From assembly GCA_900540045.1 (NCBI GenBank), contig UQEF01000032.1:1-28288 (forward strand): 28,288 bases of DNA. The letters run 5' to 3'. The stretch comes from an uncultured Eubacteriales bacterium (lineage in GTDB: Bacteria; Bacillota; Clostridia; Christensenellales; Aristaeellaceae). The first letter of the stretch is position 1. Each line of letters begins with the position of its first letter. Below, piece after piece: positions 8,735 through 26,751 of the stretch. The notes under the pieces were generated by a model that was given only the letters and a program-made list of their open reading frames with translations, ran no database searches and had not been told where the DNA came from. Position numbers and translations under genes: made by a program.

Positions 8735-8754
8735 ATCGCCGTTTTAAAAATAAC

Positions 8755-12243: not shown

Positions 12244-13387
12244 GGCTAACCGCTTACAGTCCCCGTGGATCCCGGCCTTCTCCGGGCTGCGCTTTCTCAT
12301 TATTATCTTTTTGTGTCTTCACCATTTTGATGCGTTCAATGACCTGCAGGTACCCGGCTGGTCAGAAGTCATGCGGCTTTTGACTGAAGGTTATCTAAGT
12401 GTCAATTTCTTCTTCATCTTGTCCGGCTTTGTGATCCAGTACTCCTACGGACCACAACTACGGCAGGGTGTCCTTAGCACCAAGAGCTTTTTGTTCAATC
12501 GCTTTGCTCACCTGTGGCCCACTTATCTTCTGGCCCTGGCGGCAGCTCTGGTTGTCTATGCGGGTGTTTCCGCTCCCTATTACCTGAAAACGAGTTCTTT
12601 CTGGTGCCATGTCTTTATGGTGCAGAGCTGGATTCCGGACAGCACCTTTGCATTTAATTTCAACGGAGCGGCATGGTCCGTCTCCACCGAGGTGTTTTTT
12701 TATCTGCTGTTTCCCTGCCTAGTACAACTCAAGGACAAGCACCGTAACGCCCTGATGGTGGGGCTGTGGGGGGGTATCCTACTCAATATCCTTGTTATGG
12801 GGCTCGCCTCCCCCCTTGCCGACTGGCTGCTTTATATCAACCCTGTATTCCGTCTGGCGGAATTTCTCTTGGGAATATGGCTGTGCGACCTATTCCGCAC
12901 TGGCCTTTTCGCGCCCTCCAGCAAAAAGAGCGCCACCATTATGGAGGGCGTGGCGGTTCTGATTCTGGTCTGCTCTATCGGCATCGCCATGAGCGCGGCC
13001 ATTGGTTGGCAGTGGCGCTGGCAGATTTTCTACACCATTCCAACCGCTATTCTCATCTACGTTTTCAGCTTTAGCCGCGGGTATCTCTCCGCCTTGCTGG
13101 GGTGCAGGTTCGCCCGTTTTCTGGGGGAGCTTGCCTTCCCCATCTATCTCATCCATCAGATCCTGATTAATTTGGCCAAGCGACTTTTTCTCCCTCAGCT
13201 GGTGGACTCTCAAGCTCTTCTGTTGGCGGAATTGGGGCCATTGTGGTCTCCATTTTGCTTGCCATTCCCATCCAGTTTCTGTTTGCAAAGCCGCTCAACC
13301 GCTGGCTGCGTAGACAGTGGGAGCGCCATATGCAAAGGTCAGCTTTATAGAAACAGCGACAGTAGGAGTGTGTTGTATTGTGAATAA
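12236..13387 (+). CDS. Acyltransferase-3 family membrane protein, C terminus frameshifted
   Basis: This is an integral membrane O-acyltransferase (acyltransferase-3/OafA type) likely to acetylate the polysaccharide. The N terminus PAFSGLRFLIIIFLCLHHF carries the family Arg and His, followed by GYLSVNFFFILSGFVIQYSY and RFAHLWPTYLLAL, all typical. ATG 12236 is preceded by GGAGGAGGTG and overlaps the previous stop by 8 bases. Near 13205-13222 the frame is lost. The +1-offset frame continues with the expected last helix (VGGIGAIVVSILLAIPIQFL, then KPLNRWLRRQWE) and stops at 13348-13350, giving a protein of ~371 residues. As sequenced, the reading frame instead runs to 13387 with ~57 aberrant residues. 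A one-base loss in the gene, or a sequencing error, explains this. Activity of the shifted form is doubtful. Confidence 0.85.
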   Translation: MSKANRLQSPWIPAFSGLRFLIIIFLCLHHFDAFNDLQVPGWSEVMRLLTEGYLSVNFFFILSGFVIQYSYGPQLRQGVLSTKSFLFNRFAHLWPTYLLALAAALVVYAGVSAPYYLKTSSFWCHVFMVQSWIPDSTFAFNFNGAAWSVSTEVFFYLLFPCLVQLKDKHRNALMVGLWGGILLNILVMGLASPLADWLLYINPVFRLAEFLLGIWLCDLFRTGLFAPSSKKSATIMEGVAVLILVCSIGIAMSAAIGWQWRWQIFYTIPTAILIYVFSFSRGYLSALLGCRFARFLGELAFPIYLIHQILINLAKRLFLPQLVDSQALLLAELGPLWSPFCLPFPSSFCLQSRSTAGCVDSGSAICKGQLYRNSDSRSVLYCE

Positions 13388-14276
13388 GAAGCTGTTGATC
13401 ACAGGGGGAAACGGCTTTATCGGCCGTTATCTCTGCCGGGAGTGCATCAAGCACGGGATCGATTTTCTCGTGCTGTCCCAGGATGGAACGTGCGCACAGC
13501 GCGGAGGAACCGGATTTCCTGCCAACCTGCTGGATGCCCGCTCCCTAGATCGCGCCATCGAGTACTTCCAGCCCCACGCAGTGATCCACCTGGCCGCTAT
13601 TGCCTCCCCCGTGCACCAAAACATCGCCGAGGTGTACAACGTCAATGTAGTAGGCACAGAGAATCTACTAAACTCCGCCCAAAAGCATCTCCCCGCCGGG
13701 AGCCGTGTAATTCTTGCCAGCACTGCCGGGGTATACGGCAACCAGCCGGTCAGCCACTTGAGTGAGGATATGCCCTTTAACCCAGTGAATCACTACTCCT
13801 ACAGCAAGATGGTCATGGAGTTTTTGAGCCGGCAGTACGCCGATGCGCTGGATATCAATATTATCCGGCCGTTTAATATTATCGGCCCTGGCCAGAAGGA
13901 GAATTTTTTTATCTCCAAGTTGATAAAGCATTTTTCTCAGCGGGCACCTGAGATCTTCCTTGGCAATTTGAAAGCGGTACGGGACTATGTTTCTGTGGAG
14001 CTCTGTGCCAAAACCGTGCTGGATCTGGCGGTGTCTCAGGAGCCTATCCCCCCGGTTTTGAATATCTGTTCCGGCACGGGACACTCCTGCGAGGACGTTG
14101 TCCATATCTTGGAGGAGCTGACCGGGCACCACCCTAAAATTCACTCCACCGCCGATCTATCCAGGCCCAATGAAATCTGGCGTTTGGTGGGCGATCCCAG
14201 CAGGTTAAAAAGTGTGATCCATGGAAAATACAGCATTGATCCGTTGGAGGCGATCCTCACAGGGATGCTGACATAA
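13380..14276 (+). CDS. NAD-dependent epimerase/reductase, probable GDP-4-keto-6-deoxymannose reductase
   Basis: The 298-residue protein is an extended SDR with the dinucleotide-binding GGNGFIG at residues 9-15 and the catalytic Y139-x3-K143 in HYSYSK. Several stretches resemble Rmd, the reductase that makes GDP-D-rhamnose from the Gmd product: RPFNIIGPGQ, then GNLKAVRDYVSV, and a C-terminal RPNEIWRLVGDPSRLK close to the R-P-x-E-V-P-x-x-x-GD-x-S-x-L motif. With gmd in the same window this assignment is attractive but not proven; a UDP-sugar epimerase is the main alternative. The start is GTG 13380, with AGGAG at 13364-13368. In-frame extension to 13317 would overlap the acyltransferase further and has no ribosome binding site. 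Confidence 0.8.
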   Translation: MNKKLLITGGNGFIGRYLCRECIKHGIDFLVLSQDGTCAQRGGTGFPANLLDARSLDRAIEYFQPHAVIHLAAIASPVHQNIAEVYNVNVVGTENLLNSAQKHLPAGSRVILASTAGVYGNQPVSHLSEDMPFNPVNHYSYSKMVMEFLSRQYADALDINIIRPFNIIGPGQKENFFISKLIKHFSQRAPEIFLGNLKAVRDYVSVELCAKTVLDLAVSQEPIPPVLNICSGTGHSCEDVVHILEELTGHHPKIHSTADLSRPNEIWRLVGDPSRLKSVIHGKYSIDPLEAILTGMLT

Positions 14277-14381
14277 GCAGTTTGGGCCACATCCCCTGGG
14301 ACGGGGCATTTTTCCCAGCATCCTCCGAGCATTTCCCAAAGCAGGCCTTTTAAAATGAATGAAAGAAGATAGGAGACCACT

Positions 14382-15980
14382 ATGGTAAGACCACGCAAGA
14401 CAGTTTTTATCATCATTGTTACCTGCTTTATCTGCATTCCCCTGGTGATACAGGGGGGATACACACTTACCGGGAAGCGGTACGATATCCCCCTGGTTGG
14501 AGTTGCAAGCGACACACAGGCGCCGAAAAAATCCCTGCAGGGCTTTCTGGAGGGGAGCTACCAGTCCGACTATGAGCAGTGGCTGAACACTAACCTTATT
14601 CCCCGGGGCGTCCTCGTTAAGCTGTATAATCAAATTCGATACAGTCTATTCAACCTAGGAAGTGAATGGATCATTGGAAAAAATAAGGACATCATCGGCC
14701 TTGACTATATCAATGAGTATCTCAGCCTCGGACAGGCGTATAATTTTTCCTTGGCGGAGAATCAGCAGGCGATGCAGGCATACGTCGGCCATCTGGTGAG
14801 TGTTCAGGATAAGTTGAATAAGGTTGGTAAAAGTTTCCTCATCTATACCACGCCTTCCAAAGCCGAGTATTACCCCGAGAACATTCCGGAAAAGTATTGG
14901 CTGCAGAAGCCAGAGAACGGGGTGCGCGGCATCTCCCTTTTCCGCGAGCTGATTGCACAGACCGACGTCAACTACTTGGACACCCGAGAAATTATTGAGC
15001 AGAACAGGGAATATCCCCTGTTCTATACCACGGGGATCCACTGGGCGCGCCCCATTGAACAGCAGGTTTCTAACGCGATTTTCGAAAAGCTGGAGGACAT
15101 CTCGGGCAAGCACTTTCGCAAGTTGGAGCTGATGGATGTCCACGCTAGTGAAACGCCCTTTTGGCGAGATTCAGATGTGTTTCAGTTGCAAAACCTCTAC
15201 GAGCGCGTGTCGGGCCAGACGTACTATGAGTATGACGTAGTGCCAGTCTACACAGATGCCTATGACAAGCTGAATATTTTAAAGCAGGGCGGCTCCTTTT
15301 CTGAGGGGTTGGAGCATGACTATTACTCCTTTTTCCCCAACGAGAGCTATGTCTATCTTAATTACAACACTTATGCTGTAGAAAATGGAGTCTGGCGGCC
15401 CATCAGTGGCTGGGAAGAGATAGACCTAGCCAGTTACCTGGATCGTGCGGATTATGTTGTCATTGAAGTGAATGACTGTGTGCTCCCCAGCTATTCCAAC
15501 GGTTTTGTGGAGTACCTGGATCTGTTTCTGGACTCCTATGTCCCAACTCAGGCTTCGCCTAAGACATACGGGGTAAATCTGGATGCTTCCACGTTGACCG
15601 GCGGCGATGTGTGCGGCGGACTGTACGGATTTGAAGACGGTTTCTGCTGGTCCACTGGGAAGAGCTATGTCATCCTCCAAAATCCTATGATCGCCCAAAA
15701 CGGTCTGGAGCTTCAGTTTAATCTTCCCCCGGAGCTTTTTCAGGGCATGGATGTGCAGCTAGTTGCCTATGTCAATCAGAAAAAGAAGGCGGAATTATTT
15801 GTGAATTCCGCCGGCCCATGCAGTATCATCCTTACACCGGAAATGCTCAGTCCAGCGGCGGACGACATCTATGAAATTGAGCTCTACTGCTCTCACTCTT
15901 TTATTCCCGCACAGCTTGGCATAAGTGATGACACGCGCACTTTGTCCATGCAAATTGTATATATTGGTGAGGTCAGATAA
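14382..15980 (+). CDS. AlgX/AlgJ-like polysaccharide O-acetylation protein
   Basis: This 532-residue protein has a short basic N terminus, one membrane segment (about residues 7-27) and a large outside domain. The domain resembles the SGNH-type acetyltransferases AlgX/AlgJ, which pass acetyl groups from an MBOAT partner to exported polysaccharide. TTPSKAEYYPENIPEKYW is the conserved P-x-K...YP-x-x-x-P stretch. The His-Trp pair sits in GIHW at 218-221, and the likely nucleophile Ser305 is in GGSF. In the canonical proteins these motifs read D-x-HW and GDSF, so both Asp positions are Gly here. The C-terminal ~120 residues may form a beta-rich, carbohydrate-binding-like module. AGGAG (14371-14375) precedes the ATG. 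The MBOAT gene follows after one base, a pairing typical of such systems. Confidence 0.8.
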   Translation: MVRPRKTVFIIIVTCFICIPLVIQGGYTLTGKRYDIPLVGVASDTQAPKKSLQGFLEGSYQSDYEQWLNTNLIPRGVLVKLYNQIRYSLFNLGSEWIIGKNKDIIGLDYINEYLSLGQAYNFSLAENQQAMQAYVGHLVSVQDKLNKVGKSFLIYTTPSKAEYYPENIPEKYWLQKPENGVRGISLFRELIAQTDVNYLDTREIIEQNREYPLFYTTGIHWARPIEQQVSNAIFEKLEDISGKHFRKLELMDVHASETPFWRDSDVFQLQNLYERVSGQTYYEYDVVPVYTDAYDKLNILKQGGSFSEGLEHDYYSFFPNESYVYLNYNTYAVENGVWRPISGWEEIDLASYLDRADYVVIEVNDCVLPSYSNGFVEYLDLFLDSYVPTQASPKTYGVNLDASTLTGGDVCGGLYGFEDGFCWSTGKSYVILQNPMIAQNGLELQFNLPPELFQGMDVQLVAYVNQKKKAELFVNSAGPCSIILTPEMLSPAADDIYEIELYCSHSFIPAQLGISDDTRTLSMQIVYIGEVR

Positions 15981-15981
15981 G

Positions 15982-17373
15982 ATGGTATTTAGTTCTGCTG
16001 TATTCCTGTTCGTCTTTCTCCCTATCACGGCGTTTGTATACTATTTCAGCGCTGCCCAGGTAAAAAACTACGTCCTATTGATTGCCTCGCTGTTCTTTTA
16101 TGCCTGGGGTGAGCCACAGTATATTCTGCTGATGCTGCTCTCCATTCTGATCAACTATGTCTTCGGCCTCATCATAGAAGGGATACGCGGCAGAAAGAAG
16201 GATAAGCTGTGTTCCCTGCTTATGTGTCTGGCCGTGGTGTTCAATCTTGCACTTTTGGGATACTATAAATATGCTGGATTTTTGTATGAAAATTTAAACC
16301 GGGTATTGCCGCTCAATCTGGATATCCCCCAAGTACCTCTGCCTATCGGAATTTCTTTTTACACCTTCCAGATCCTCTCCTATGTCATCGATGTCTACCG
16401 AGGAAACGTGCCGGCACAGAGAAATGTGTTAAACCTAGGGCTGTATATATCCTTTTTCCCTCAGCTCATCGCCGGTCCCATTGTACGGTATATTGACATT
16501 GAAGCGCAAATCAAAAGCCGCCAGCTGTCCATGGATAAGGTATATGAGGGTCTGCGCTGCTTTACAGCCGGATTTGCAAAAAAAATACTTCTAGCCGATC
16601 AGCTAGCACCGCTGGCGGATGCCATGTTTAATGCCAGCGACATCTCCGCGCCCAGCGCTTGGGTGGGTGCAATTGCTTACACATTCCAAATCTACTTTGA
16701 CTTCAGCGGATATTCTGACATGGCCATTGGTCTTGGAAAAATCTTCGGTTTTGAATTTGCACAAAACTTCAATTACCCCTATATCTCTCGATCCATCCAG
16801 GAATTCTGGCGCAGGTGGCATATTTCCCTTTCCACCTGGTTCAAGGACTATGTGTATATTCCCCTGGGAGGCAGCCGGAACGGGACCTGGCGCACATACA
16901 GGAACCTGATCATCGTCTTTTTTTTCACAGGACTCTGGCACGGAGCCAGTTGGAATTTTATTGTTTGGGGCCTATACTATGTGCTGTTTCTCATCTTTGA
17001 GCGGATGGGCGGTCATGCCATTTTGGATCGGTTGCCGCGGTTTTTGCAGCACATCTATTCACTGCTTATCATCATAGTGGGCTGGGTTTTCTTCCGGGCA
17101 CAAGACCTGGAAAGCGCGCTGCACTACTTAGTGAGTATGTTCACCGCCAGCGACGGGGCATGGACAGACCTGTATATCCACCTGAACCCGCAGCTGGTAT
17201 TTTGCCTGGTCGCAGCCACCATCTTCTCGCTACCCGTGGGAAGGGTTCTGGTACAGCGGCTGCGCGGGAATACGCAAATTATTTACGATGGCTTTTTGGT
17301 GATTGTCTTTCTCATCGCCATTTCCTATATGCTGGGGAGCGGGTTCAGCCCATTCCTCTACTTCCGCTTTTGA
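15982..17373 (+). CDS. AlgI-like MBOAT O-acyltransferase
   Basis: This 463-residue multispanning membrane protein moves acyl (usually acetyl) groups across the membrane for polysaccharide O-acetylation. MVFSSAVFLFVFLP at the N terminus is characteristic of the AlgI/DltB branch. The conserved WRRWHISLSTWFKDYVYIPLGG is at about 276-297 and the catalytic His320 is in TGLWHGASWNF. The start at ATG 15982 lies one base after the previous stop, with GGTGAGG upstream, so the two genes are translated together. With the AlgX/AlgJ-like neighbour it forms a complete transfer pair: membrane carrier plus extracytoplasmic transferase. It is the last gene of the polysaccharide operon, 30 bases before a strong terminator. 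Confidence 0.93.
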   Translation: MVFSSAVFLFVFLPITAFVYYFSAAQVKNYVLLIASLFFYAWGEPQYILLMLLSILINYVFGLIIEGIRGRKKDKLCSLLMCLAVVFNLALLGYYKYAGFLYENLNRVLPLNLDIPQVPLPIGISFYTFQILSYVIDVYRGNVPAQRNVLNLGLYISFFPQLIAGPIVRYIDIEAQIKSRQLSMDKVYEGLRCFTAGFAKKILLADQLAPLADAMFNASDISAPSAWVGAIAYTFQIYFDFSGYSDMAIGLGKIFGFEFAQNFNYPYISRSIQEFWRRWHISLSTWFKDYVYIPLGGSRNGTWRTYRNLIIVFFFTGLWHGASWNFIVWGLYYVLFLIFERMGGHAILDRLPRFLQHIYSLLIIIVGWVFFRAQDLESALHYLVSMFTASDGAWTDLYIHLNPQLVFCLVAATIFSLPVGRVLVQRLRGNTQIIYDGFLVIVFLIAISYMLGSGFSPFLYFRF

Positions 17374-17586: not shown

Positions 17587-17861
17587 ACTTATTCGACCGC
17601 TCTTCTATCCCATCACACCCGTCCATCGTTTGTTTCAATTATACCATAGGGGGGGAAGAAGTGTTTGGGGCTTTTGTTAACAGGTTCCTTATGCCACCTT
17701 ATCCAAAAATGAATTTTGTGTTAATTTTTTCACTCTACACTTCCAAACGCCTCCCTTTTTCTCCTTGTATTTATGAAGGGCCTTTTTTCGCCTGCCCCTT
17801 CAGCATCTGCATAACCCACCCCCAAAAACCAAAAACTACCGTCGTACAAGGAGGCGATTCA
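17587..17861. other. AT-rich stretch without a recognised gene
   Basis: This 275-base stretch separates the transposase relic from the small gene before the recombinase. It contains pyrimidine-rich segments and a G-run near 17648-17655. Apart from the ribosome binding site at its right end and the - strand TATAAT near 17640, I recognise nothing in it. Confidence 0.5.
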
Positions 17862-18125
17862 TTGGAGATCAGCATAAGGGATGCGCAAAAAATCGTTGAG
17901 GTCTGGCTGACCAATTCCGAAAAAAACGACCCGGCCATTGCGGCAAGGCTACAGCCGCTGTACCGGGCGTACCAAAAGCAAAAATATACCGTAGCGGTGT
18001 TTCAGTCCGGCAACGCCGATCTGTTTGGCTGCACGCGCGACCTGCTGCGTTACAATAGAAAGCGTGTCGCGGAGCTGGAAACCCTGCGCGAAAAGAGTGC
18101 AGGCCCGGCTGCGCCCGAACCGTAA
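17862..18125 (+). CDS. Small protein of unknown function paired with the recombinase
   Basis: This 87-residue soluble protein starts at TTG 17862, supported by a strong AAGGAGG (17848-17854) 7 bases upstream. A longer in-frame reading back to 17553 crosses the AT-rich stretch and is not credible. The sequence is mostly helical in character (SIRDAQKIVEVWL, LQPLYRAYQKQKYTVAVF, RDLLRYNRKRVAELETLREK), with a charged C-terminal helix and a Pro/Ala-rich end. I do not recognise a domain. Its position just before the serine recombinase, with no other gene between, suggests a role in the same element: a recombination directionality factor, a regulator, or an accessory DNA-binding protein. That is inference from position and size only. 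Confidence 0.75.
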   Translation: MEISIRDAQKIVEVWLTNSEKNDPAIAARLQPLYRAYQKQKYTVAVFQSGNADLFGCTRDLLRYNRKRVAELETLREKSAGPAAPEP

Positions 18126-18181: not shown

Positions 18182-18210
18182 TTGCAATCCCCCGCAGGAT
18201 CGTGTACAAT
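18182..18210 (+). promoter_or_regulatory. SigA-type promoter for the recombinase
   Basis: TTGCAA (18182-18187) and TACAAT (18205-18210) are separated by 17 bases. Transcription would begin near 18217 and leave a leader of ~150 bases before the ATG at 18367. Confidence 0.65.
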
Positions 18211-18366: not shown

Positions 18367-20535
18367 ATGATCGAAACCTTCGACATCGCCGGTTACACCC
18401 GCATTTCCGTGGACGATGAGCTGGACCGGGATAACGTCTCCATCGAAAACCAGAAGGCCATCATCCGCGACTTTGTGAAGCAGCGCTTTCCAGGCAGCAG
18501 CCTCACCTTCTTTGAGGACCGCGACCGCTCCGGCTACACCTTTGAGCAGCGCGAGGGCTATCAGGAGATGCGCCGCGGCCTGATGGCCCACAAGTATGAC
18601 ATTTTGCTCGTCAAGGATTTCTCGCGCTTCTCCCGCCGCAACAGCCGCGGCCTGGTGGAGCTGGAGGACCTGCGCGACGCCGGCGTGCGCATCATCTCCA
18701 TCGGCGACGGCATCGACTTCCCCAACGATGACGACTGGCTGAAAATCCAGTTTCAGTTTCTCATCAACGAAATGCCCGTCACCGATACCAGCAAAAAGGT
18801 ACGAAACGTCATCCGCCGGCGGCAGGTGGACGGAAAATGGATCTGCGCCGCGCCCTATGGCTACACCGTCAACAAGCGCAAGGAATTTGAAGTGGTGCCG
18901 ACCGAAGCGGACATCGTGCGCCGCATCTTTGACCACTACAACAACGATGGCTGGGGCTACAAGAAAATTGCCAATTTTCTGACCGCGCAGGGCATCCCCA
19001 CGCCGCGCATGTCCGAGCAGATGCGCAGGGAAGCCGCCGGTGAGGAAACCCGCCGCGCGGCCAAGAGCGCGTGGGCGATCGTGACCGTGCAGGGCATCCT
19101 CGACAATGACTTCTACATCGGCACATTCCGTCAGGGCAAGACCACTCGCGTCAAGATCAACGGCAAGGACGTGGCGCGGGACGAAAGCGAGCATATCGTC
19201 ATCGAAAACCACCACCAGCCCATCATCGACTACCGCACCTTCGCCACCACGCGCGCGCTGCGCGAAAGCCGCTCCCGCTCCCACTACCGCGGCGTCAAGA
19301 AGTACGACAACGTCTACTCCGGTTTCCTCCAGTGCGGCGACTGCGGAAGCCCGATGTTTGCCATGAGCCGCAGCGACCTGGCCCCCGCCTACACCTGCGG
19401 CACCTATCACCGCCGGGGGACGGCGGGCTGCACCAGCCACCACATCCGCGCGGACCGGCTGGACGAGCTGATGAAGCTGTATGTCCGGCGCGTGATGGAA
19501 AGCTCGGCTTCCATGATTGAGCGGCTGAATCAGGACCTTGCCGCCGAGCAGGAAAACGTCGCCGAAACCGAGCAATCCGCCGACCACCTCGCTTCGGTGC
19601 TGGACGACCTGCACGAGGAGCTCAAGGCCACCAAGCGCCAGCGCATCCGCGACATCATGAAGCACCCCGATCAGGAGGCGCTGCTGGAGGAAACCTACGA
19701 CGAGCTGGAAAGCGACCTCCAGCGCAGGATCGAAGGGCTGACCCATCAGATCGACCTGCTCTCAGACAGGCGCAACACAATCCTGCGGGTCAACCGCGTG
19801 GCCAAAACCGCCATGGACGTTTTTAGGGACATCCTCGCCAAGGAAAAGCTCGACCGAAACGACCTGCGGCTCATCATCGACCACATCAAGGTCTACGAGG
19901 ATCACCTCGAAATTCAGCTTCAGGCGGATATCGACCAGCTGCTTCGGTCCTGCGAGCTGGAGGATACCGTAAATTTTAAGCCAGGCATCGAAAACGCCCT
20001 GGGTTGCCAACTTGTCCAGTCTGCCAGAAACCAGCGGGACAAGGTTTTCGATGTCCATGTTGTCAGCAGCGGCGACCCCCTGGAGATTTACACCGACCGG
20101 GATGGCGAGGTCATCCTGAAGAAATACTCCCCCATCGGGGAAATGTCGGCCTTCGCCAAGGATTATACGGAATCCATCTTTCGCGCCATGGGACACATCG
20201 CCTGCATCGTGGACCGTGATCAGGTGGTGGCAGCCAGCGGCGTAAGCAAGAAGGAACTGGCTGACAAGCCTATCAGCCACGATCTGGAAACGGCCATCGC
20301 CAACCGGCAGACCGTGGCCATCAACCGCGCGGGCGGCGGCAAGATCGTGGCCGTGACCAACGAGGAGGACATCACCGGCTATACGGCGCAGGTGGTCTCC
20401 CCCATCATTGCGGACGGCGAGGCCATCGGAGCGGTGCTGCTCCTGTCCAAGGAGCAGGGCGCCAAGATGGGAGACGCGGAGCTCAAGGTGGCGGAGACCG
20501 CCGCGGGCATCGTGGGCCGCCAGATGGAGCAGTAA
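18367..20535 (+). CDS. Large serine recombinase fused in frame to the SpoVT C-terminal part
   Basis: The 722-residue protein begins with a resolvase catalytic domain (residues 1-150): the nucleophile is Ser14 in YTRIS, with a DFSRFSRR motif further on. A recombinase DNA-binding domain follows (about 165-280), then a zinc ribbon with Cys323, Cys326, Cys344 and Cys355, and a charged coiled coil (about 370-460). From about residue 569 (GDPLEIYTDRDGEVILKKYS) to the end (ETAAGIVGRQMEQ) it matches SpoVT: the second half of its AbrB domain plus the whole GAF-like domain. The first ~30 SpoVT residues are missing. AAAGGAGG (18350-18357) precedes the ATG. The frame has no stop at the junction, and the downstream genes are the normal neighbours of spoVT. 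Either the element sits inside spoVT, or this is a stable fusion protein. Recombinase activity looks intact from the motifs. Confidence 0.9.
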   Translation: MIETFDIAGYTRISVDDELDRDNVSIENQKAIIRDFVKQRFPGSSLTFFEDRDRSGYTFEQREGYQEMRRGLMAHKYDILLVKDFSRFSRRNSRGLVELEDLRDAGVRIISIGDGIDFPNDDDWLKIQFQFLINEMPVTDTSKKVRNVIRRRQVDGKWICAAPYGYTVNKRKEFEVVPTEADIVRRIFDHYNNDGWGYKKIANFLTAQGIPTPRMSEQMRREAAGEETRRAAKSAWAIVTVQGILDNDFYIGTFRQGKTTRVKINGKDVARDESEHIVIENHHQPIIDYRTFATTRALRESRSRSHYRGVKKYDNVYSGFLQCGDCGSPMFAMSRSDLAPAYTCGTYHRRGTAGCTSHHIRADRLDELMKLYVRRVMESSASMIERLNQDLAAEQENVAETEQSADHLASVLDDLHEELKATKRQRIRDIMKHPDQEALLEETYDELESDLQRRIEGLTHQIDLLSDRRNTILRVNRVAKTAMDVFRDILAKEKLDRNDLRLIIDHIKVYEDHLEIQLQADIDQLLRSCELEDTVNFKPGIENALGCQLVQSARNQRDKVFDVHVVSSGDPLEIYTDRDGEVILKKYSPIGEMSAFAKDYTESIFRAMGHIACIVDRDQVVAASGVSKKELADKPISHDLETAIANRQTVAINRAGGGKIVAVTNEEDITGYTAQVVSPIIADGEAIGAVLLLSKEQGAKMGDAELKVAETAAGIVGRQMEQ
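20071..20535 (+). other. spoVT: Displaced 3' part of spoVT
   Basis: These codons encode residues ~31 onward of a SpoVT-like regulator, a sporulation transcription factor that acts late in the forespore in Bacillus. The retained part holds GDPLEI, the VILKKYSP strand and the GAF-like ligand domain (GHIACIVDRDQVVAASG, then VSPIIADGEAIGAVLLL). The missing N-terminal ~30 residues normally carry the RRIDDLGR and IPKEIR segments that contact DNA, so this portion alone should not bind DNA as SpoVT does. Start and control signals must come from elsewhere, either from the recombinase promoter or, after excision, from the original spoVT promoter. Confidence 0.85.
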
Positions 20536-20584
20536 CGCCCGCGCAGCGCCGGCGGCCTCTCCGCCCTCAACGCACATCATTACC

Positions 20585-20613
20585 TTGCGAAACCGCGGCA
20601 ATGCGCTTATAAT
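20585..20613 (+). promoter_or_regulatory. Promoter for the yabM/spoVB-like gene
   Basis: TTGCGA (20585-20590) and a perfect TATAAT (20608-20613) are 17 bases apart. The start point would be near 20620, about 50 bases before the TTG start. The -10 element lies in the loop of the inverted repeat at 20590-20629. Confidence 0.65.
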
Positions 20614-20630
20614 AGGCTTGCCGCGGTTTT
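20590..20630 (+). terminator. Perfect inverted repeat, possible terminator or operator
   Basis: A perfect 12-bp stem (20590-20601 against 20618-20629) with a 16-base loop is followed by only a short T-run (TTTT, ending at 20630). It lies ~55 bases after the stop of the recombinase-SpoVT gene and may end that transcript. Because it straddles a promoter it may instead be a regulator binding site. Confidence 0.5.
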
Positions 20631-20671
20631 GCCATATTCCGCCGCCAATATGCTTTTTTCGGAGGCCTTTT

Positions 20672-22264
20672 TTGAGCAGTACGCAGAAATCCATCCTCAG
20701 CGGCATGACCATTTTGAGCGTGGTGGGCCTGATCTGCAAGATCGTGGGCGCCCTGTACCGCATCCCCCTGGCCTGGCTCATCGGGGACGAAGGTATGGGT
20801 ACCTATCAGCTGGTCTTTCCCACCTATAACATGCTGCTGACCATCTCCTCGGCCGGCCTGCCGGTAGCCATCAGCCGCATGGTCAGCTTCACGCTGGCTC
20901 GCGACGACCCCCGCAACGCCCGGCGCATCTTCCGCGTGGCGCTGTGCCTTCTTTCCACCCTCGGCCTGATTGCCACACTGCTCATGCTGGTCATGAGCCC
21001 CACGCTCGCCCTGCGCTCGGGCGACCCCTCCACCCAGCCGGGCTTTGTGGCCATTGCGCCGGCCCTTTTGCTGGTATGCGCCATGTCCGCGCTGCGCGGC
21101 TTCATGCAGGGACAGCAGAACATGGTGCCCACCGCCATTTCCCAGCTGATCGAGCAGGTGGGCAAGGTGTTTGTCGCCCTGCCGCTGGCGTATTTCGGCA
21201 TGCGCATCTCCGTGGCCTATGCGGCCGCGGGCGTGCTGCTGGGCACCTCCATTGCCGAGGGCGTAGCGCTTCTGTACATGGTGGTGATCTACCGGCGCAA
21301 GCGCGCCGCTTTTGACGCCCTGCCCCAAAACCCGGATGAGACGCCTCTGGCCGTGCGCCCCCTGCTCAAGCGCCTGCTGTCTTTGAGCATCCCCATCACG
21401 CTGGGCGCGTGTATCGTGCCCATCGCCTCCTTTATCGACAGCGGCCTCCTGCTCAACCGTCTGGTGGACGCGGGCATCGAGCGCGCCTCCGCGCTGGGGC
21501 TCTATGGGCGCTATTCGGGCTATGTGCTCACTTTGATCAATGTGCCTACCGCCCTGGCCGTGGCCATTTCCATGAGTCTGGTCCCCTCCATCTCCAGCGC
21601 GATGGCCAGGGGCGACGGCAAAACCATGCGCCGCCAAAGTTCGCTGGGACTGCGGCTGTCCTTTGTGGTGGGGCTGCCCTGCTCCATCGGCATGAGCCTT
21701 TTGTCCTCGCAGATTCTCAGCCTGATCTATCATTTTGATACGCCGGAGGCCCTGCGCGTGACCGCCGAGCTGCTCCGCCTCTCGAGCCTCACCATCGTGC
21801 TCTTTACCGTGGTGCAGTCCACCAGCGGCATTTTGCAGGGCCTGCGCAAGCAGCGCATTCCCATGTATACGCTCATGGCGGGCGTGGCCGTCAAGGTGCT
21901 GCTCAACTACACGCTGATCGGCATGCCCGGCATCAACATCTACGGCGCGCCCATCGCCTCGCTCGCCTGCTACACCATCAGCATGCTGCCCAACCTGTGG
22001 TATGTGCGCAAGTACACCGGCATGAAGCTGGACCTGAAAGGCATTCTGCTCAAGCCCGCGCTGGCCACTGCGCTCATGGGCGCGGTGCTGGCGCCGGCCA
22101 TCCGCCTGCTGCCCTCGGGACGGCTGTGGACGCTGGCGCTGGTCGCGCTGGGCGTCTGCACCTATGCCGCCTTTGCGCTTCTCACCGGCGCGCTGACCCG
22201 TGATGACCTAGCTCCCCTGCTCAGGCGCTTCGGACGCGGCAGGGCGCCAAAGAAGGAGGATTGA
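20672..22264 (+). CDS. yabM: SpoVB/YabM-like polysaccharide flippase (MVF/MOP superfamily)
   Basis: This 530-residue protein has about 14 membrane segments and belongs to the MOP exporter superfamily, which flips lipid-linked sugars or peptidoglycan precursors. The N terminus ILSVVGLICKIVGALYRIPL, then GMGTYQLVFPTYNMLLTIS and SAGLPVAISRMVS are strongly conserved in the SpoVB/YtgP/YabM group. The start is TTG 20672, chosen because CGGAGG (20660-20665) is at the right distance; an ATG at 20705 has no ribosome binding site. In Bacillus yabM lies directly after spoVT and before yabN, and the same order is seen here. A role in spore cortex or wall synthesis is likely from family and place, though the exact cargo is not known. 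The mazG gene follows after 3 bases. Confidence 0.9.
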   Translation: MSSTQKSILSGMTILSVVGLICKIVGALYRIPLAWLIGDEGMGTYQLVFPTYNMLLTISSAGLPVAISRMVSFTLARDDPRNARRIFRVALCLLSTLGLIATLLMLVMSPTLALRSGDPSTQPGFVAIAPALLLVCAMSALRGFMQGQQNMVPTAISQLIEQVGKVFVALPLAYFGMRISVAYAAAGVLLGTSIAEGVALLYMVVIYRRKRAAFDALPQNPDETPLAVRPLLKRLLSLSIPITLGACIVPIASFIDSGLLLNRLVDAGIERASALGLYGRYSGYVLTLINVPTALAVAISMSLVPSISSAMARGDGKTMRRQSSLGLRLSFVVGLPCSIGMSLLSSQILSLIYHFDTPEALRVTAELLRLSSLTIVLFTVVQSTSGILQGLRKQRIPMYTLMAGVAVKVLLNYTLIGMPGINIYGAPIASLACYTISMLPNLWYVRKYTGMKLDLKGILLKPALATALMGAVLAPAIRLLPSGRLWTLALVALGVCTYAAFALLTGALTRDDLAPLLRRFGRGRAPKKED

Positions 22265-22267
22265 CCC

Positions 22268-23719
22268 ATGAACCGCCTGACCATCGTGACCCTCGGAACC
22301 GGCGGAGAGGCTTTTCTGACCCGCGGCGTGGAGCGCGCGCTTCATGAGGCGCCGCGCGTGGTGCTGCGCACGGCGCGCCACCCCATGGCGGATTTTCTCA
22401 AGGAAGAGGGCATCGCCTTTGAGACGCTGGATGCGCTCTACGACGAATGCGAGGACTTCGATACCTTCAACCGCGCGGCCGCCGTCAAGGTGCTCAGCCT
22501 TTTGAATGAAAGCCCCGTGTGCTATGCGGTGAGCGACGCGGCCTTCGACGAGACCGTGGCCCAGATTCAGCGGCTCAAGCCCAGGGAGGCGGATGTGCGG
22601 GTCCTGCCCGGCGTGAGCCATGCGGACCGCTGCCTGGCCCTGGTTGCGGATGCGCCGGCAGGCGTCAGGCTGTACGCGGCGGAGTCCTTTTTGCAAACCC
22701 GCGTTTCCCCGGAGGAACCCCTGCTGGTAACAGAGCTGCACAGCCGCGAATGCGCGGGCAGCGTAAAGCTTCGGCTGATGGACCTTTTGCCCGAGGACCT
22801 GCCCGTATCCTTCTTCACCGGCGACGAAAGCACGGGCGAACTGGCCATGCATTCCGTGCCGCTCTACGAGCTGGACCGCCAGAGCGCCTACGACCACCTC
22901 ACCGCCGCCTATGTGCCCGCCGTGCCCATGGAGAGGCGCATCCGCTACGACATGGACGATCTGGTGCGTGTGATGGAGCGCCTGCGCGCGCCCGACGGCT
23001 GTCCCTGGGACCGTGAGCAGACCCATGAGAGCCTGCTGCCGAGCCTGCTGGAGGAGAGCTACGAATACATTCAGGCCGTGCGCGACGGCGACATCGACCA
23101 TATGTACGATGAACTGGGCGACGTGCTTTTGCAGGTGGTATTCCACGCCGAGGTGGCACGGCAGCATGGCGATTTCGACCTTCATGACGTCACCACCGCC
23201 ATCTGCCACAAGATGATCGAGCGGCACACCCACATCTTCGGCACGGAAAAGGCCGACACCGCCGGGCAGGTGCTGGATAACTGGGAGGCCCTCAAGCGCC
23301 GCCAGCGCGGCATCACCACGCACGCGCAGGCCATGGAGGACGTATCCACCGGTCTGTCTCCCCTGCTTCGCGCCAGCAAGGTGCAGCATAAGGCACACAA
23401 GGTGGGCTTTGACTTTGCGGGTGCGGCGGAGGCGCTCGGCAAGGTCTATGAAGAGGCGGACGAAGTGGCCCAGAACCTGCACGACGGTGCGGACCCGGAA
23501 ATGGAGCTGGGCGATCTGCTGTTTTCCGTGGTGAACGTTTGCCGCCTGGCTGGCAAGAACCCCGATATTGCCCTTTCTGCTTCCACAAATAAGTTTATTT
23601 CCCGCTTCCGTGCCATGGAAAACGCCATAAAAAAGTCGGGAAAATGCTTAGAGGACTTGACTTTATCGGAAATGGATGTATACTGGAACACAGGAAAGCG
23701 AGGCGGGCAAAGGGTTTGA
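22268..23719 (+). CDS. mazG: MazG nucleotide pyrophosphohydrolase with N-terminal methylase-like domain (YabN)
   Basis: The 483-residue protein combines a tetrapyrrole (SAM-dependent) methylase-like domain (about 1-220, starting MNRLTIVTLGTGGEAFLT) with two MazG units. The first MazG unit holds EESYE at 262-266 and YDELGD at 280-285, the Mg-binding acidic motifs, after a CPWDREQTHESL stretch typical of the family. The second unit is weaker (YEEADEVAQN, ELGDLL). MazG hydrolyses nucleoside triphosphates to monophosphates and removes aberrant nucleotides; the job of the methylase-like part is unknown. This architecture and place match Bacillus yabN. AGGAGG (22254-22259) gives strong initiation. 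The last ~60 bases contain a promoter for hup. Confidence 0.93.
   Translation: MNRLTIVTLGTGGEAFLTRGVERALHEAPRVVLRTARHPMADFLKEEGIAFETLDALYDECEDFDTFNRAAAVKVLSLLNESPVCYAVSDAAFDETVAQIQRLKPREADVRVLPGVSHADRCLALVADAPAGVRLYAAESFLQTRVSPEEPLLVTELHSRECAGSVKLRLMDLLPEDLPVSFFTGDESTGELAMHSVPLYELDRQSAYDHLTAAYVPAVPMERRIRYDMDDLVRVMERLRAPDGCPWDREQTHESLLPSLLEESYEYIQAVRDGDIDHMYDELGDVLLQVVFHAEVARQHGDFDLHDVTTAICHKMIERHTHIFGTEKADTAGQVLDNWEALKRRQRGITTHAQAMEDVSTGLSPLLRASKVQHKAHKVGFDFAGAAEALGKVYEEADEVAQNLHDGADPEMELGDLLFSVVNVCRLAGKNPDIALSASTNKFISRFRAMENAIKKSGKCLEDLTLSEMDVYWNTGKRGGQRV
23657..23684 (+). promoter_or_regulatory. SigA-type promoter for hup inside the mazG 3' end
   Basis: TTGACT (23657-23662) and TATACT (23679-23684) are 16 bases apart, within the last codons of mazG. 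The start point would be near 23691, giving a leader of ~115 bases before the GTG of hup. Confidence 0.7.
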
Positions 23720-23806
23720 GCCAAAAACCCCGTGAGATCGCGCTTTCCATGAACGAAACCCCGTCTTCCGTGCTATGCATGGGAAAATCAAAGGAGGTAA
23801 TTCATT

Positions 23807-24082
23807 GTGAACAAAGCTGAATTGACTGCCGCCATCGTTAAGAAGACCGGTTTTACCAAGAAGGACGCTGAGAAGGCGATTGCTGCCGTGACCGACGTCA
23901 TCACCGAGACCCTGGCCGCTGGCGAGAAGGTCCAGATCGTTGGCTTCGGCGGCTTCGAAGTCCGCAGCCGCCCCGCGCGCGTGGCCCGCAATCCCCGCAC
24001 CGGCGAGCAGATCAGCATCGAGGCCTCCAAGGCCCCCGTCTTCAAGGCCGGCAAGGCTCTGAAGGACAGCGTCAACAAGTAA
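23807..24082 (+). CDS. hup: HU-type nucleoid DNA-binding protein
   Basis: This 91-residue protein is a typical HU: helical dimer part MNKAELTAAIVKKTGFTKK, then the conserved GFGGFEVRSRPARVARNP with the DNA-binding arm RNPRTGEQI, and the C-terminal helix FKAGKALKDSVN. It packs and bends DNA as a homodimer. The start is GTG 23807, with a near-perfect AAAGGAGGT (23790-23798) 8 bases upstream. It has its own strong promoter and its own terminator, as expected for an abundant protein. A hup gene between mazG and rqcP is a common clostridial arrangement. Confidence 0.97.
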   Translation: MNKAELTAAIVKKTGFTKKDAEKAIAAVTDVITETLAAGEKVQIVGFGGFEVRSRPARVARNPRTGEQISIEASKAPVFKAGKALKDSVNK

Positions 24083-24091
24083 TTCTTTTTG

Positions 24092-24165
24092 GAAAAATCG
24101 CCGTCACCGATGGCGGTCCGCGCGTCGTCCGGCAGTCTGCAGCGGCTGTCTGACGGCGCTTTTTT
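24092..24165 (+). terminator. Intrinsic terminator after hup
   Basis: GAAAAATCGCCGTCA (24092-24106) pairs with TGACGGCGCTTTTTT (24151-24165) around a GC-rich region that can form an inner hairpin. The perfect 8-bp core plus flanking A/T pairs and six T fit a terminator. Confidence 0.75.
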
Positions 24166-24171
24166 CGTCCC

Positions 24172-24200
24172 TTGCCCACCGCGGCCAAATGCGGTATCAT
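24172..24200 (+). promoter_or_regulatory. SigA-type promoter for the M42 peptidase operon
   Basis: TTGCCC (24172-24177) and TATCAT (24195-24200) are 17 bases apart, just after the hup terminator and about 33 bases before the ATG. It probably also serves rqcP, ispD, ispF and comEC. Confidence 0.6.
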
Positions 24201-24232
24201 AAGAAAAAACCATGTTTTGGAGGAAATGTTCC

Positions 24233-25261
24233 ATGCCGCTTGACGCCTGCTATTCCCTTGACCAGACCCTGCGCCTCCTCTCCATCCCCAGCCCCACGGG
24301 CTATCCCCGTCAGGTATGCGGCGCCCTCGTAGAAACGCTGGAAGGCCTTGGCTTTTCTCCCCGGCAGCTCCGCAAAGGCGGCGTGGTGTGCCCCCTGGGC
24401 GGCGAGGGACGTCCTCTCGCGCTGGCTGCGCATGTGGACACGCTGGGGCTGATGGTGCGCGCCGTCAAGCCGGACGGGCGGCTGGCCTTCACCTGCCTGG
24501 GCGGGCCGTCCCTGCAGGCGGTAGAGACCGAAAATGTGACCGTCATCACCCGCGGAGGCCAGCGCTACACCGGCGTGGTGGAGCTGCGCAACGCCTCCAA
24601 GCACGTCAACCGCGAGCTGGACAGCGAAAAGCGCGACGACACGACGCTGGAGATCCTGCTGGACGAGGAGGTTTCCTCCCGCGAGGACGTGGAGCGGCTG
24701 GGCATCGCCGTGGGCGATATCGTCTGCCTGGACCCCCGCGCCCGCGTGACCGAAAGCGGCTTCATCCGCAGCCGCTTTCTGGACGACAAGCTCAGCGCCG
24801 GCATGCTGCTGACGCTGGCCAGGGGCGTGGCGGAAGGTACCGTCCGGCTTTCGCGCAAGGTCACGCTGTTTTTCTCCGTCTATGAGGAGGTCGGCCACGG
24901 CGCGTCCTGCGGCCTCCCGGAGGATACCGAGGACCTTCTGGTGGTCGATATGGGCTGCGTGGGCGAGGGGCTTTCCTGCCGCGAACAGCAGGTATCCATC
25001 TGCGCCAAGGATTCCTCCGGCCCCTATGATTACGAAATGACCGGCGAGCTCATCGCGCTGGCCAAGTCAAACGGCATCGACTACGCCGTGGACGTATACC
25101 CCGCCTACGGCAGCGATGCGGCGGCGGCGCTGCGCGCGGGGCGTGACGTGCGCTTTGCGCTCATCGGCGCGGGCGTATACGCCTCGCACGGGTATGAGCG
25201 CAGCCACCGCAAGGGCGTGGAGAACACCCTGCGCCTGATCGAAGCGGCCGTGACCGCCTGA
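24233..25261 (+). CDS. M42 family metallo-aminopeptidase
   Basis: This 342-residue cytoplasmic protein matches the M42 glutamyl aminopeptidase family (often annotated endoglucanase). It shows the two-metal site in order: AAHVDTLGLMV (His, Asp), RFLDDKLSAG (bridging Asp), the catalytic EE pair in VYEEVGHGAS, VVDMG (Asp), and a C-terminal ASHGYERSH (His). The start at ATG 24233 is chosen because TGGAGGA (24218-24224) lies 8 bases upstream; an earlier ATG at 24212 would place this ribosome binding site inside the gene. It begins the operon with rqcP, 16 bases downstream. A peptidase here is not part of the usual spoVT-yabO block. Substrates cannot be predicted. Confidence 0.92.
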   Translation: MPLDACYSLDQTLRLLSIPSPTGYPRQVCGALVETLEGLGFSPRQLRKGGVVCPLGGEGRPLALAAHVDTLGLMVRAVKPDGRLAFTCLGGPSLQAVETENVTVITRGGQRYTGVVELRNASKHVNRELDSEKRDDTTLEILLDEEVSSREDVERLGIAVGDIVCLDPRARVTESGFIRSRFLDDKLSAGMLLTLARGVAEGTVRLSRKVTLFFSVYEEVGHGASCGLPEDTEDLLVVDMGCVGEGLSCREQQVSICAKDSSGPYDYEMTGELIALAKSNGIDYAVDVYPAYGSDAAAALRAGRDVRFALIGAGVYASHGYERSHRKGVENTLRLIEAAVTA

Positions 25262-25277
25262 AAGGAGCAAACCCCTC

Positions 25278-25556
25278 ATGAGGTTGGACAAGTTTTTGAA
25301 GGTTTCGCGCATCATCAAGCGCCGCACCGTGGCCAACGAGGCCTGCTCGGGCGGCCGCGTATCGCTCAACGGCAAGGTGGCCAAGCCCGGCGCGGAGGTG
25401 CGCGAGGGCGACGTGCTGGAGATCCGCTTCGGCAGCCGGGTGGGGCGCTACCGCATCCAGAGCGTGAAGGAAACCGTGCGCAAGGAAGGAGCGCAGGACA
25501 TGTACGAGGTGCTTGAGGAGGATGAGCAGACGCGCATGGAGCGCGGGGAGGCATAA
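25278..25556 (+). CDS. rqcP: S4-domain RNA-binding protein RqcP (YabO)
   Basis: The 92-residue protein is a small S4-domain protein: MRLDKFLKVSRIIKRRTVAN, followed by GGRVSLNGKVAKPGAEVREGDVLEI, the RNA-binding loop and strand of the fold. In Bacillus the orthologue YabO/RqcP binds 50S subunits and works with RqcH in tagging stalled nascent chains with alanine. Length and position after mazG and hup match. AAAGGAG (25261-25267) precedes the ATG. The Bacillus neighbours yabP, yabQ and divIC do not follow; ispD does, one base after the stop. Confidence 0.93.
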   Translation: MRLDKFLKVSRIIKRRTVANEACSGGRVSLNGKVAKPGAEVREGDVLEIRFGSRVGRYRIQSVKETVRKEGAQDMYEVLEEDEQTRMERGEA

Positions 25557-25557
25557 G

Positions 25558-26259
25558 GTGAAAAGCTACGCCATCATCTTGGGCGGGGGCAGCGGCCGCC
25601 GCATGGAGGCGGACCGCAACAAGGTGTTTCTGCCGCTTCGGGGCATTCCCGCCATCGTGCGGGCCATCGCGCCGTTTTCCGCGCTCTGCGCGGGCGCGGT
25701 GGTGGTGGCTGCCGCCGCCGAGGTGGAGGAGATGCGCGCGGTGATCGCCCGCTGCGGGCTGGACCGCTTTGTGATGCGGGTGGTGCCCGGCGGCGCGGAG
25801 CGGCAGGACTCGGTGCGCTGCGGGCTGGACGCCCTGCCGGCCGACGCCGAATGCGTGCTCATCCACGACGGCGCGCGCGCTCTGGTCACCGAGGACGTCA
25901 TCCGCCGCGCCATCGAATCGGTGGAGAAGCGCGGTTCGGGCATCGCGTCGATGCCTGTGACCGACACCATCAAGCGCGCCGCGCCCGACGGGCTGGTGCT
26001 GGATACCCCCGACCGATCTGCCCTTCGCGCCATGCAGACCCCGCAGGCCTTCCGGGTGGAGCTGATCCGTAAAGCCCACGAGATCGCCCGCCGGGACGGG
26101 TTTTTGGGGACGGACGACGCCGCTTTGCTGGAGCATGCGGGCATGCCGGTCTACCTGTGCGAGGGCAGCCGCGAAAACCTCAAGCTCACCACTCCCACCG
26201 ACCTCATGCTCGCCGGGCTGATTCTGGCCGCGCGGGCGGAAAAGGAGCTGATTGGATGA
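25558..26259 (+). CDS. ispD: 2-C-methyl-D-erythritol 4-phosphate cytidylyltransferase
   Basis: IspD makes CDP-methylerythritol in the non-mevalonate (MEP) isoprenoid pathway. The 233-residue protein starts KSYAIILGGGSGRRM with the CTP-binding glycine loop, followed by KVFLPL with the catalytic Lys. GGAERQDSVRCGLDAL, LIHDGARALV and AMQTPQAF are family signatures. The start is GTG 25558 with GGGGAGG (25545-25551) upstream. It overlaps ispF by ATGA, so the two are translationally coupled, as in many bacteria where both act in the same pathway. The upstream in-frame extension lies inside rqcP. Confidence 0.95.
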   Translation: MKSYAIILGGGSGRRMEADRNKVFLPLRGIPAIVRAIAPFSALCAGAVVVAAAAEVEEMRAVIARCGLDRFVMRVVPGGAERQDSVRCGLDALPADAECVLIHDGARALVTEDVIRRAIESVEKRGSGIASMPVTDTIKRAAPDGLVLDTPDRSALRAMQTPQAFRVELIRKAHEIARRDGFLGTDDAALLEHAGMPVYLCEGSRENLKLTTPTDLMLAGLILAARAEKELIG

Positions 26260-26747
26260 TGCGCATCGGACACGGCATGGACGTGCATCGCCTGGTGGAG
26301 GGCCGAAAGCTCATCCTCTGCGGGGTGGAGGTGCCCCACACGCTGGGCCTGCTGGGCCACAGCGACGCCGACGTGGCCACCCATGCCCTGATGGACGCGC
26401 TGCTGGGCGCGGCTGCGCTGGGCGATATCGGCAAGCTCTTTCCCGATACGGACGAGCGCTACCGCGGCGCGGACTCCATCAGGCTGCTGAAGGAAGTCTG
26501 CGCGCTGCTCCGCCGGGAAGGCTATGCGCTGGGCAACGCGGACGTGACCATCGTGGCGCAGCGGCCCAAACTGCGCCCCTACATCGACGTCATGCGGGCC
26601 CGTCTGGCTCAGGCCATGGGCGTGGAGGATGGCCGCGTGAGCGTCAAGGCCACCACCACCGAACATCTCGGGTTTGAGGGCGAGGAGCTGGGCATCAGCG
26701 CGCACGCGGTATGCCTGCTGGAAACGCTCTCCCCTGAACCGAGGTAA
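26256..26747 (+). CDS. ispF: 2-C-methyl-D-erythritol 2,4-cyclodiphosphate synthase
   Basis: IspF cyclises CDP-methylerythritol 2-phosphate to MEcPP in the MEP pathway and works as a trimer. The 163-residue protein carries the zinc site D9-x-H11 in GHGMDVHRL, the GHSDADV motif, DIGKLFPDTD, and the C-terminal KATTTEHLGFEGE substrate loop. The start may be ATG 26256 or the next codon, ATG 26259; AAAGGAG (26241-26247) fits either. The stop lies 4 bases before the comEC ATG. The kinase IspE is not in this window. Confidence 0.96.
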   Translation: MMRIGHGMDVHRLVEGRKLILCGVEVPHTLGLLGHSDADVATHALMDALLGAAALGDIGKLFPDTDERYRGADSIRLLKEVCALLRREGYALGNADVTIVAQRPKLRPYIDVMRARLAQAMGVEDGRVSVKATTTEHLGFEGEELGISAHAVCLLETLSPEPR

Positions 26748-26751
26748 CGTC

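What the first reader, a model, noticed from the sequence alone, without database searches (positions are those of the whole stretch)
18367..20535. Serine recombinase reads in frame into SpoVT: a candidate skin-like element controlling a sporulation regulator
One uninterrupted frame encodes a complete large serine recombinase followed by SpoVT residues ~31 to the end. The first ~30 SpoVT residues (the main DNA-contacting part) are absent, and the genes downstream (yabM, mazG, hup, rqcP) are the usual neighbours of spoVT. Known skin elements interrupt sigK and some other sporulation genes and are excised by a serine recombinase during development. An element that splits spoVT and uses the host codons as the recombinase's own C terminus would be a new version. 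It would also tie recombinase and regulator together: before excision the cell makes recombinase-SpoVT(C), after excision it makes SpoVT. The GAF-like ligand domain of SpoVT attached to the recombinase could even sense a signal that controls excision.
Basis: partly seen in the sequence, partly recalled or inferred. Interest (0 to 1): 0.93.

Follow-up and report, generated by a model that had tools for sequence, protein, structure and literature searches.

The report
Mobile element splitting spore regulator spoVT
Here a recombinase gene runs without a break into the back part of the spore-regulator gene spoVT, and many relatives carry the missing front piece 7 to 81 kb upstream, so a mobile element has split the gene there and presumably here too; it would likely be cut out inside the developing spore to restore spoVT, whereas the best-studied elements of this kind leave only the mother cell.

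Summary
Confirmed: window 18367-20535 is one 722-aa frame, a large serine recombinase running into SpoVT codons 31-184. It is common: 40 of 300 genomes sampled from one family carry a stop-free fusion. In relatives the missing spoVT codons 1-33 lie elsewhere, and on shared contigs 28 of 29 times upstream on the same strand, 7-81 kb away. Both junctions share the core GGYGACC; joining them gives full-length SpoVT. The other product has inverted arms around GA and gives the recombinase a short C-terminus that evolves as protein. In one metagenome assembly intact and split forms share 141 bases and part exactly at the core. Recombinase and SpoVT identities are decoupled, so the element is mobile. 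A small gene near the recombinase, a candidate directionality factor, has sigma-F-like sites in 24 of 52 copies (7 of 409 controls); spoVT has sigma-G-like sites, the recombinase sigma-A-like sites. But spoIIR, a usual sigma-F gene, does not match these patterns. Best reading: a skin-like element excised in the forespore, then perhaps reintegrated. Excision, timing and the factor's role are inferred; no circle was found. The window's own front piece would lie left of base 1. Searches of held papers listed no spoVT element.

The parts
1..17373 (+). Polysaccharide gene cluster (ABC transporter, phosphomannomutase, manC, gmd, rfbC, rfbD, glycosyltransferases, acyltransferases, AlgX-like, MBOAT); inferred cargo of the element, whose left end would lie beyond base 1
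   Evidence: ORFs and Pfam; GC 0.517 against 0.655 downstream; pmm and gmd homologues (56%, 74%) inside G010's 81-kb element, none of these genes found in the other elements compared
17809..17838 (+). GCATA-N16-CAAAAACTA, a near match to a forespore-type promoter before the small gene; not counted as a hit
   Evidence: Position; the window copy is no hit
17862..18125 (+). Small gene, 87 codons with TTG start; candidate recombination directionality factor
   Evidence: Homologues on the + strand in 60 of 76 loci at E<=1, four of them weak; with the window, 41 of 61 lie within 300 bases of the recombinase start. No family match above cut-off, no convincing fold match
18182..18210 (+). Sigma-A-like site TTGCAA-N17-TACAAT before the recombinase
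   Evidence: Position; such sites before 31 of 56 recombinases against 70 of 409 control ORFs
18367..20070 (+). Large serine recombinase, residues 1-568, putative catalytic Ser14 (role by recalled family knowledge; invariant in 45 aligned sequences)
20059..20098 (+). attR-like junction: recombinase-side arm from 20059, core GGCGACCC 20071-20078, predicted crossover GA 20074-20075, then spoVT DNA
   Evidence: the crossover dinucleotide is inferred from the symmetry of the arms in G027
20071..20535 (+). spoVT codons 31-184 and stop, in frame with the recombinase
20536..28288 (+). Host chromosome right of spoVT (MATE type, mazG, hup, M42 peptidase, rqcP, ispD, ispF, ComEC-like)
   Evidence: near homologues follow spoVT in relatives with split and with intact gene; ComEC-like named by recall

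Best explanation
A mobile element has split spoVT after codon 30 in relatives, and presumably here, so that its recombinase gene now ends in the back part of spoVT, and it is predicted to be excised by that recombinase inside the forespore, which would restore spoVT when the developing spore needs it. Shown in relatives: the gene is split at one core, its front piece usually lies upstream on the same strand, the halves join to a full SpoVT, and intact alleles exist, in one assembly beside the split form. Inferred: the recombinase is made throughout growth; the small gene is a directionality factor switched on by sigma-F; excision follows; sigma-G then transcribes whole spoVT. The excised circle would give the recombinase back its own short tail, and with the factor gone after germination that form would reinsert the circle. 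One crossover thus swaps the C-termini of two proteins.
For: Front piece in 26 of 30 and 24 of 37 split genomes, upstream on the same strand in 28 of 29 same-contig cases. Shared core and, in G027, arms that pair at 13 of 15 positions around GA. Joined halves give SpoVT of 175-184 aa in 27 of 27 pairs, 21 with an identical 8-base core (joined at the homologous codon, so the frame at the joint follows by construction). Front piece pN/pS 0.09; tail 0.36 in frame against 1.49 and 1.14 in shifted frames. Intact SpoVT with the same 154 residues as the window. Assembly fork exactly at the core in G043. Decoupled identities of recombinase and SpoVT part. Sigma-F-like sites before 24 of 52 small genes, controls 7 of 409; sigma-G-like before 21 of 39 spoVT copies, controls 0 of 409. 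Spore genes kept: SASP 39 of 41, spoIIR 22 of 24, strong sigG hit 39 of 41 though 6 pass the curated cut-off.
Against: No excision was seen; the G043 fork could be two strains. No circle: 0 pattern hits in viral contigs, all 102 candidates carry SpoVT_C. No front piece found in 4 of 30 and 13 of 37 split genomes (some drafts). G013 has the pieces in reverse order; G342 has the recombinase inverted and unfused; G277 has stops. Known forespore genes of the hosts hardly match the patterns: spoIIR 0-1 of 21, SASP 2 of 24 (F) and 0 of 24 (G). The patterns were made after seeing part of the data (27 unseen copies: 6 hits) and copies are related. The window's own small gene is no hit. 20 of 61 small-gene hits lie 0.8-8.2 kb away. 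The tail is diverged or lost in several hosts, e.g. G025.
Confidence: 0.6

Rival explanations
1. Skin-like element excised in the mother cell, or in growing cells at low rate, with no forespore control.
For: Studied elements of this kind act in the mother cell (PMC4191935; PMC5025042); yin is growth-phase dependent (PMC10747680, abstract). My promoter patterns are not confirmed by spoIIR or SASP.
Against: SpoVT works in the forespore in B. subtilis and B. cereus and is under sigma-F and sigma-G in C. difficile. Mother-cell patterns before the small gene: sigma-E 1 of 52, sigma-K 0 of 52.
Confidence: 0.15
2. Ordinary integrative element that uses spoVT as its target and costs its host sporulation until it is lost; empty sites come from strains without it, and there is no developmental switch.
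For: Mobility, split and intact forms among relatives, no circle seen.
Against: Conserved front piece (pN/pS 0.09, though recent insertion would also give this), 30 of 30 fused frames open, spore genes kept in most hosts, high prevalence in one family.
Confidence: 0.2
3. Stable new protein: recombinase-SpoVT(C) is itself the selected product, a recombinase with a ligand-sensing tail, and the front piece is a relic.
For: Fused frame open in all 30 split genomes; solved SpoVT is among the top fold matches of the fusion model (model confidence moderate, pLDDT 73.7, pTM 0.43).
Against: The two parts have separate histories, the front piece is strongly conserved, intact alleles exist.
Confidence: 0.03

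Closest known systems
skin element of C. difficile (sigK; CD1231 recombinase, CD1234 directionality factor)
   Same: Serine-recombinase element splits a sporulation regulator gene; recombinase constitutive, directionality factor cell-specific (PMC5025042, passages)
   Different: Target is spoVT; recombinase fused in frame to the back part of the target; predicted control in the forespore; element mobile between hosts with variable cargo
SPbeta in spsM (SprA, SprB)
   Same: Closest solved recombinase by sequence and fold (YokA = SprA is recalled); attachment sites with a core and inverted repeats; excision restores a spore gene (PMC4191935, passages)
   Different: SPbeta is a phage and leaves in the mother cell only
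gin in gerE of B. cereus
   Same: Non-phage element splitting a spore regulator gene (PMC5595907, passages)
   Different: Three recombinase genes; no fusion to the target was mentioned in the passages seen
yin in yabG of C. botulinum
   Same: Element in a sporulation gene, integrated and circular forms in one culture (PMC10747680, abstract)
   Different: Other target; described as found in one isolate only
SCC cassettes (CcrA/B/C)
   Same: Ccr models are the best recombinase matches in NCBIfam, far below cut-off; variable cargo
   Different: Insert near the end of rlmH without splitting it (recalled)
Integration-dependent phage immunity (attP inside the repressor gene; recalled, no call)
   Same: Integration changes the C-terminus of a protein
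   Different: Here recombinase and host regulator would exchange C-termini in one crossover

Membership tests
Skin-like sporulation gene-intervening elements | Splits the coding region of a sporulation gene into 5' and 3' parts | tested here: met
   Met in relatives; in the window only the 3' part is visible
Skin-like sporulation gene-intervening elements | Element encodes a site-specific recombinase and has attachment sites with a shared core | tested here: met
Skin-like sporulation gene-intervening elements | Precise excision restores the gene during sporulation | not testable with these tools
   Only joined alleles and one assembly fork seen
Skin-like sporulation gene-intervening elements | Excision confined to the mother cell (described for skin, SPbeta) | tested here: inconclusive
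   Promoter-like sites favour the forespore; spoIIR and SASP do not confirm the patterns
Large serine recombinases | Resolvase, Recombinase and zinc-ribbon domains, conserved Ser in the N-terminal domain | tested here: met
   Ser14 invariant in 45 sequences
Recombination directionality factors | Small protein that turns the recombinase to attL x attR excision | not testable with these tools
   Size and position fit; no family match above cut-off or fold match
SCC cassettes | CcrA, CcrB or CcrC recombinase by NCBIfam model | tested here: not met
   Best 111 bits against a cut-off of 900
SpoVT (TIGR02851) | Whole protein with AbrB-type N-terminus | tested here: not met
   182 bits against a cut-off of 236, profile positions 28-180 only

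The most novel reading that the evidence does not exclude
A germ-line developmental DNA rearrangement: in each sporulation cycle the element leaves the forespore chromosome under sigma-F control, travels in the spore as a circle and reinserts on outgrowth, and each crossover swaps the C-termini of recombinase and regulator (integrated: recombinase-SpoVT(C) and SpoVT(N)-tail; excised: SpoVT and recombinase-tail).
Probability: 0.4. Interest if true: 0.95.

Novelty: new variant of a known kind. Interest (0 to 1): 0.88.

Why it matters
The studied skin and SPbeta elements persist because they leave only the mother cell, which dies. An element in a forespore regulator with forespore-type control would break that rule and force either a cycle of excision and reintegration or steady loss and reinfection. 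It is frequent in one gut family (40 of 300 sampled genomes), so it bears on whether these commensals can make spores: a genome that seems to lack spoVT may carry it split, with the back part annotated as a recombinase. It also offers recombinases whose own C-terminus is changed by their reaction, a possible built-in direction switch. Cargo, here probably polysaccharide genes, would ride on it.

Tried and rejected
Chance or assembly fusion: rejected. Old vertical fusion: rejected on decoupled identities (identities only, no tree built; the group with SpoVT part near 45% came). A second intact spoVT beside the split one: none listed for the 30 split genomes; G034 and G043 hold both an intact gene and a front piece. 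G043 looks like an assembly fork; G034's front-piece contig shares only one 83% match of 213 bases with its intact one and is unexplained.

Led nowhere: attP pattern in viral contigs, 0; circle-form recombinase, all 102 candidates carry SpoVT_C (five looked at); family and fold searches for the small protein (one sub-cut-off GlpG match of 18.9 bits); phage records MT839487 and MT836658: the first ends just before the recombinase-side arm, the second holds a fusion; plasmids: no record where one place covers 80% of the query, best row 29% identity.

Controls: spoIIR and SASP upstreams were first read partly on the wrong strand; strands were corrected and counted (SASP; both). spoIIR gives 0-1 of 21 for every pattern, SASP 6 of 24 for one host pattern that I drew partly from SASP itself. 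spoIIR start sites are uncertain. These controls do not confirm the promoter patterns.

Rows dropped: L010, L045, L072 and L080 (recombinase start cut off). One search took 52 small genes (hit at E<=1e-4 starting within 3 residues, 110 bases upstream), 56 recombinases with enough upstream and 39 spoVT copies; the 409 control ORFs of 100 aa or more come from a simple ORF finder and include recombinase ORFs and some small genes. Two degenerate front pieces (G005, G028) were left out of promoter, tail and joining counts.

Full report
What is there. Window 18367-20535 + is a single 722-aa frame: a large serine recombinase followed from residue 569 by SpoVT codons 31-184. SpoVT's N-terminus is missing and lies nowhere else in the window. 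No genome is held for the window, so what is said of the left side comes from relatives.

It is common. The junction region gave 1910 proteins at E<=1e-3 among 3846 candidates; 119 of the 120 listed carry a recombinase domain besides SpoVT_C. A scan of species genomes found 109 relatives and kept 80 loci. Among 300 genomes sampled from the family of G007 (itself included), 38 show a full-length stop-free fusion in the listing, G020 and G383 are fused, and G277 has two stops. In a class-wide sample it is 6 of 391, G007 included; G793 has recombinase and SpoVT matches in separate segments.

The front piece. With a SpoVT N-terminal query, 26 of 30 split genomes show codons 1-33 elsewhere (32 genomes; G023 and G031 are intact; none found in G008, G016, G019, G032). 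In a second set it is 24 of 37 (39 genomes, G145 and G159 intact; one front piece has a stop). Where both pieces are on one contig, the front piece is upstream on the same strand in 28 of 29 clear cases, 7-81 kb away, among them Chakrabartyella piscis (34 kb), Ruminococcus bicirculans chromosome II (20 kb) and the 3.97-Mb contig of G072 (27 kb). The exception is G013 (front piece 19 kb downstream). G342 (recombinase inverted beside the front piece) and G002 (partial front piece) are kept apart.

The sites. Both junctions share GGYGACC (single-base exceptions in G012 and G029). Joining at the homologous codon gives SpoVT of 175-184 aa in 27 of 27 pairs, 21 with an identical 8-base core. The joint is in frame by construction; the open halves and the shared core are what this shows. 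The other product in G027 is GTTATCAGTGACGGC-GA-CCCGTCACAGATAAC, arms pairing at 13 of 15 positions around GA, the layout expected of a serine-integrase attP (established knowledge). G027's element is 25,774 bp.

A second C-terminus. Past the core the front piece reads on in frame, mostly for about 24 codons ending near LAKRxGW; in some hosts, G025 for one, it is diverged or lost. In the circle this becomes the recombinase's C-terminus. It evolves as protein: pN/pS 0.36 (0.28 for closer pairs) against 1.49 and 1.14 in shifted frames, 33 sequences; the front piece is at 0.09. So one crossover would swap C-termini: recombinase-SpoVT(C) and SpoVT(N)-tail become SpoVT and recombinase-tail. That the circle form is what selection acts on is inference; the short SpoVT(N)-tail peptide could be.

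Intact alleles. Intact SpoVT proteins exist whose last 154 residues equal the window's (P0122, 85 members; P0123). In MAG G043 a contig with intact spoVT and one with front piece plus element share exactly 141 bases and part right after the core, as an assembly fork between attB and attL would. This shows both forms in one assembly; it does not tell excision from a strain without the element. No circle was found.

Mobility. Among 172 fusions, identities to the window are decoupled: P0245-P0284 have recombinase 80-82% and SpoVT part 45%; five have 56% and 95-97%; P0009 has 79% and 100%. In 100 relatives of G027 there are 8 full and 3 cut-off fusions, and 14 of 24 genomes then searched have intact spoVT. 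Cargo varies: of the ORF clusters in 19 elements and the window only the recombinase (19 inside, and once more) and the small gene (12) are widespread. In the window the upstream 17 kb is a polysaccharide cluster at GC 0.517 against 0.655 downstream; pmm and gmd homologues lie inside G010's 81-kb element. That this cluster is cargo is inferred.

Candidate factor and timing. A gene of about 85 codons lies upstream of the recombinase in 60 of 76 loci besides the window (E<=1, four weak at 0.004-0.94; 41 of the 61 within 300 bases, the rest 0.8-8.2 kb). It has no known family or fold. A sigma-F-type pattern precedes 24 of 52 copies, 7 of 409 control ORFs and 1 of 56 recombinases. I made the pattern after seeing 25 copies; in the 27 unseen it hits 6 (p 4e-5). 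A version with GG before the -10, after the G reported for sigma-F promoters of C. difficile (PMC3789822, passages), hits 18 of 52 small genes, 1 of 409 controls, 0 of 24 SASP genes. Mother-cell patterns: sigma-E 1 of 52, sigma-K 0 of 52. spoVT has a sigma-G-type site in 21 of 39 copies, controls 0 of 409; recombinases have a sigma-A-like site in 31 of 56, controls 70 of 409. Against this: spoIIR matches in 0-1 of 21 and SASP genes in 2 of 24 for the F and 0 of 24 for the G pattern, strands corrected; copies are related, so p values overstate; the window's own small gene has only a near match. The timing is therefore the weakest step.

Why it fits. Hosts mostly keep spore genes: SASP 39 of 41, spoIIR 22 of 24, a strong near-full-length sigG hit in 39 of 41, of which 6 pass the curated cut-off. 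These sets mix split and intact hosts. SpoVT is a forespore regulator, essential for sporulation in B. cereus (PMC5061766, passages); in C. [quoted passage not shown] If the same holds here, a cell with split spoVT that is to make spores must restore it in the forespore. C. difficile skin has the same logic in the other cell: constitutive recombinase, directionality factor only in the mother cell (PMC5025042, passages).

What is new. SPbeta and skin leave only the mother cell and so stay in the spore genome (PMC4191935, passages); yin is growth-phase dependent (abstract). Here target and promoter-like sites point to the forespore, the germ line, and the recombinase shares its reading frame with the gene it splits. 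My searches listed no report of an element in spoVT or of a recombinase-SpoVT protein; most subscription papers and all preprints are outside the library. I rate it a new variant of the skin kind.

Noticed in passing
G015 (isolate P7), loci L094, L243, L250, L252, L254, L255: Two spoVT front pieces and four further copies of the tail without the SpoVT part; in L250 the arm and tail follow unrelated DNA. Perhaps scars of other insertions or several cassettes.
   Followed up: partly
G342, L310, L316, L317: Front piece directly beside an inverted, unfused recombinase, back part of spoVT 40 kb further on: a rearranged element.
   Followed up: partly
L049 (Angelakisella massiliensis): Intact spoVT about 120 bases downstream of a free recombinase of this family, with arm-like remnants between.
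   Followed up: partly
L073, L309, L311: Recombinases of this family whose arm runs into other DNA, in genomes with intact spoVT elsewhere.
   Followed up: partly
G013, L120-L121: Front piece lies 19 kb downstream of the fusion on one 37-kb contig; unexplained.
   Followed up: partly
18 contigs of relatives left of spoVT: Genes left of spoVT are hardly shared even among relatives with intact spoVT (largest shared group 3 of 18), while genes on the right are; the left side looks like a hotspot.
   Followed up: partly
G005 L114 at 3623; G028 at 2503: Degenerate extra spoVT front pieces beside the good one, perhaps older scars.
   Followed up: no
window 9373-12243: 956-aa protein with two glycosyltransferase stretches in one chain, in the predicted cargo.
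   Followed up: no
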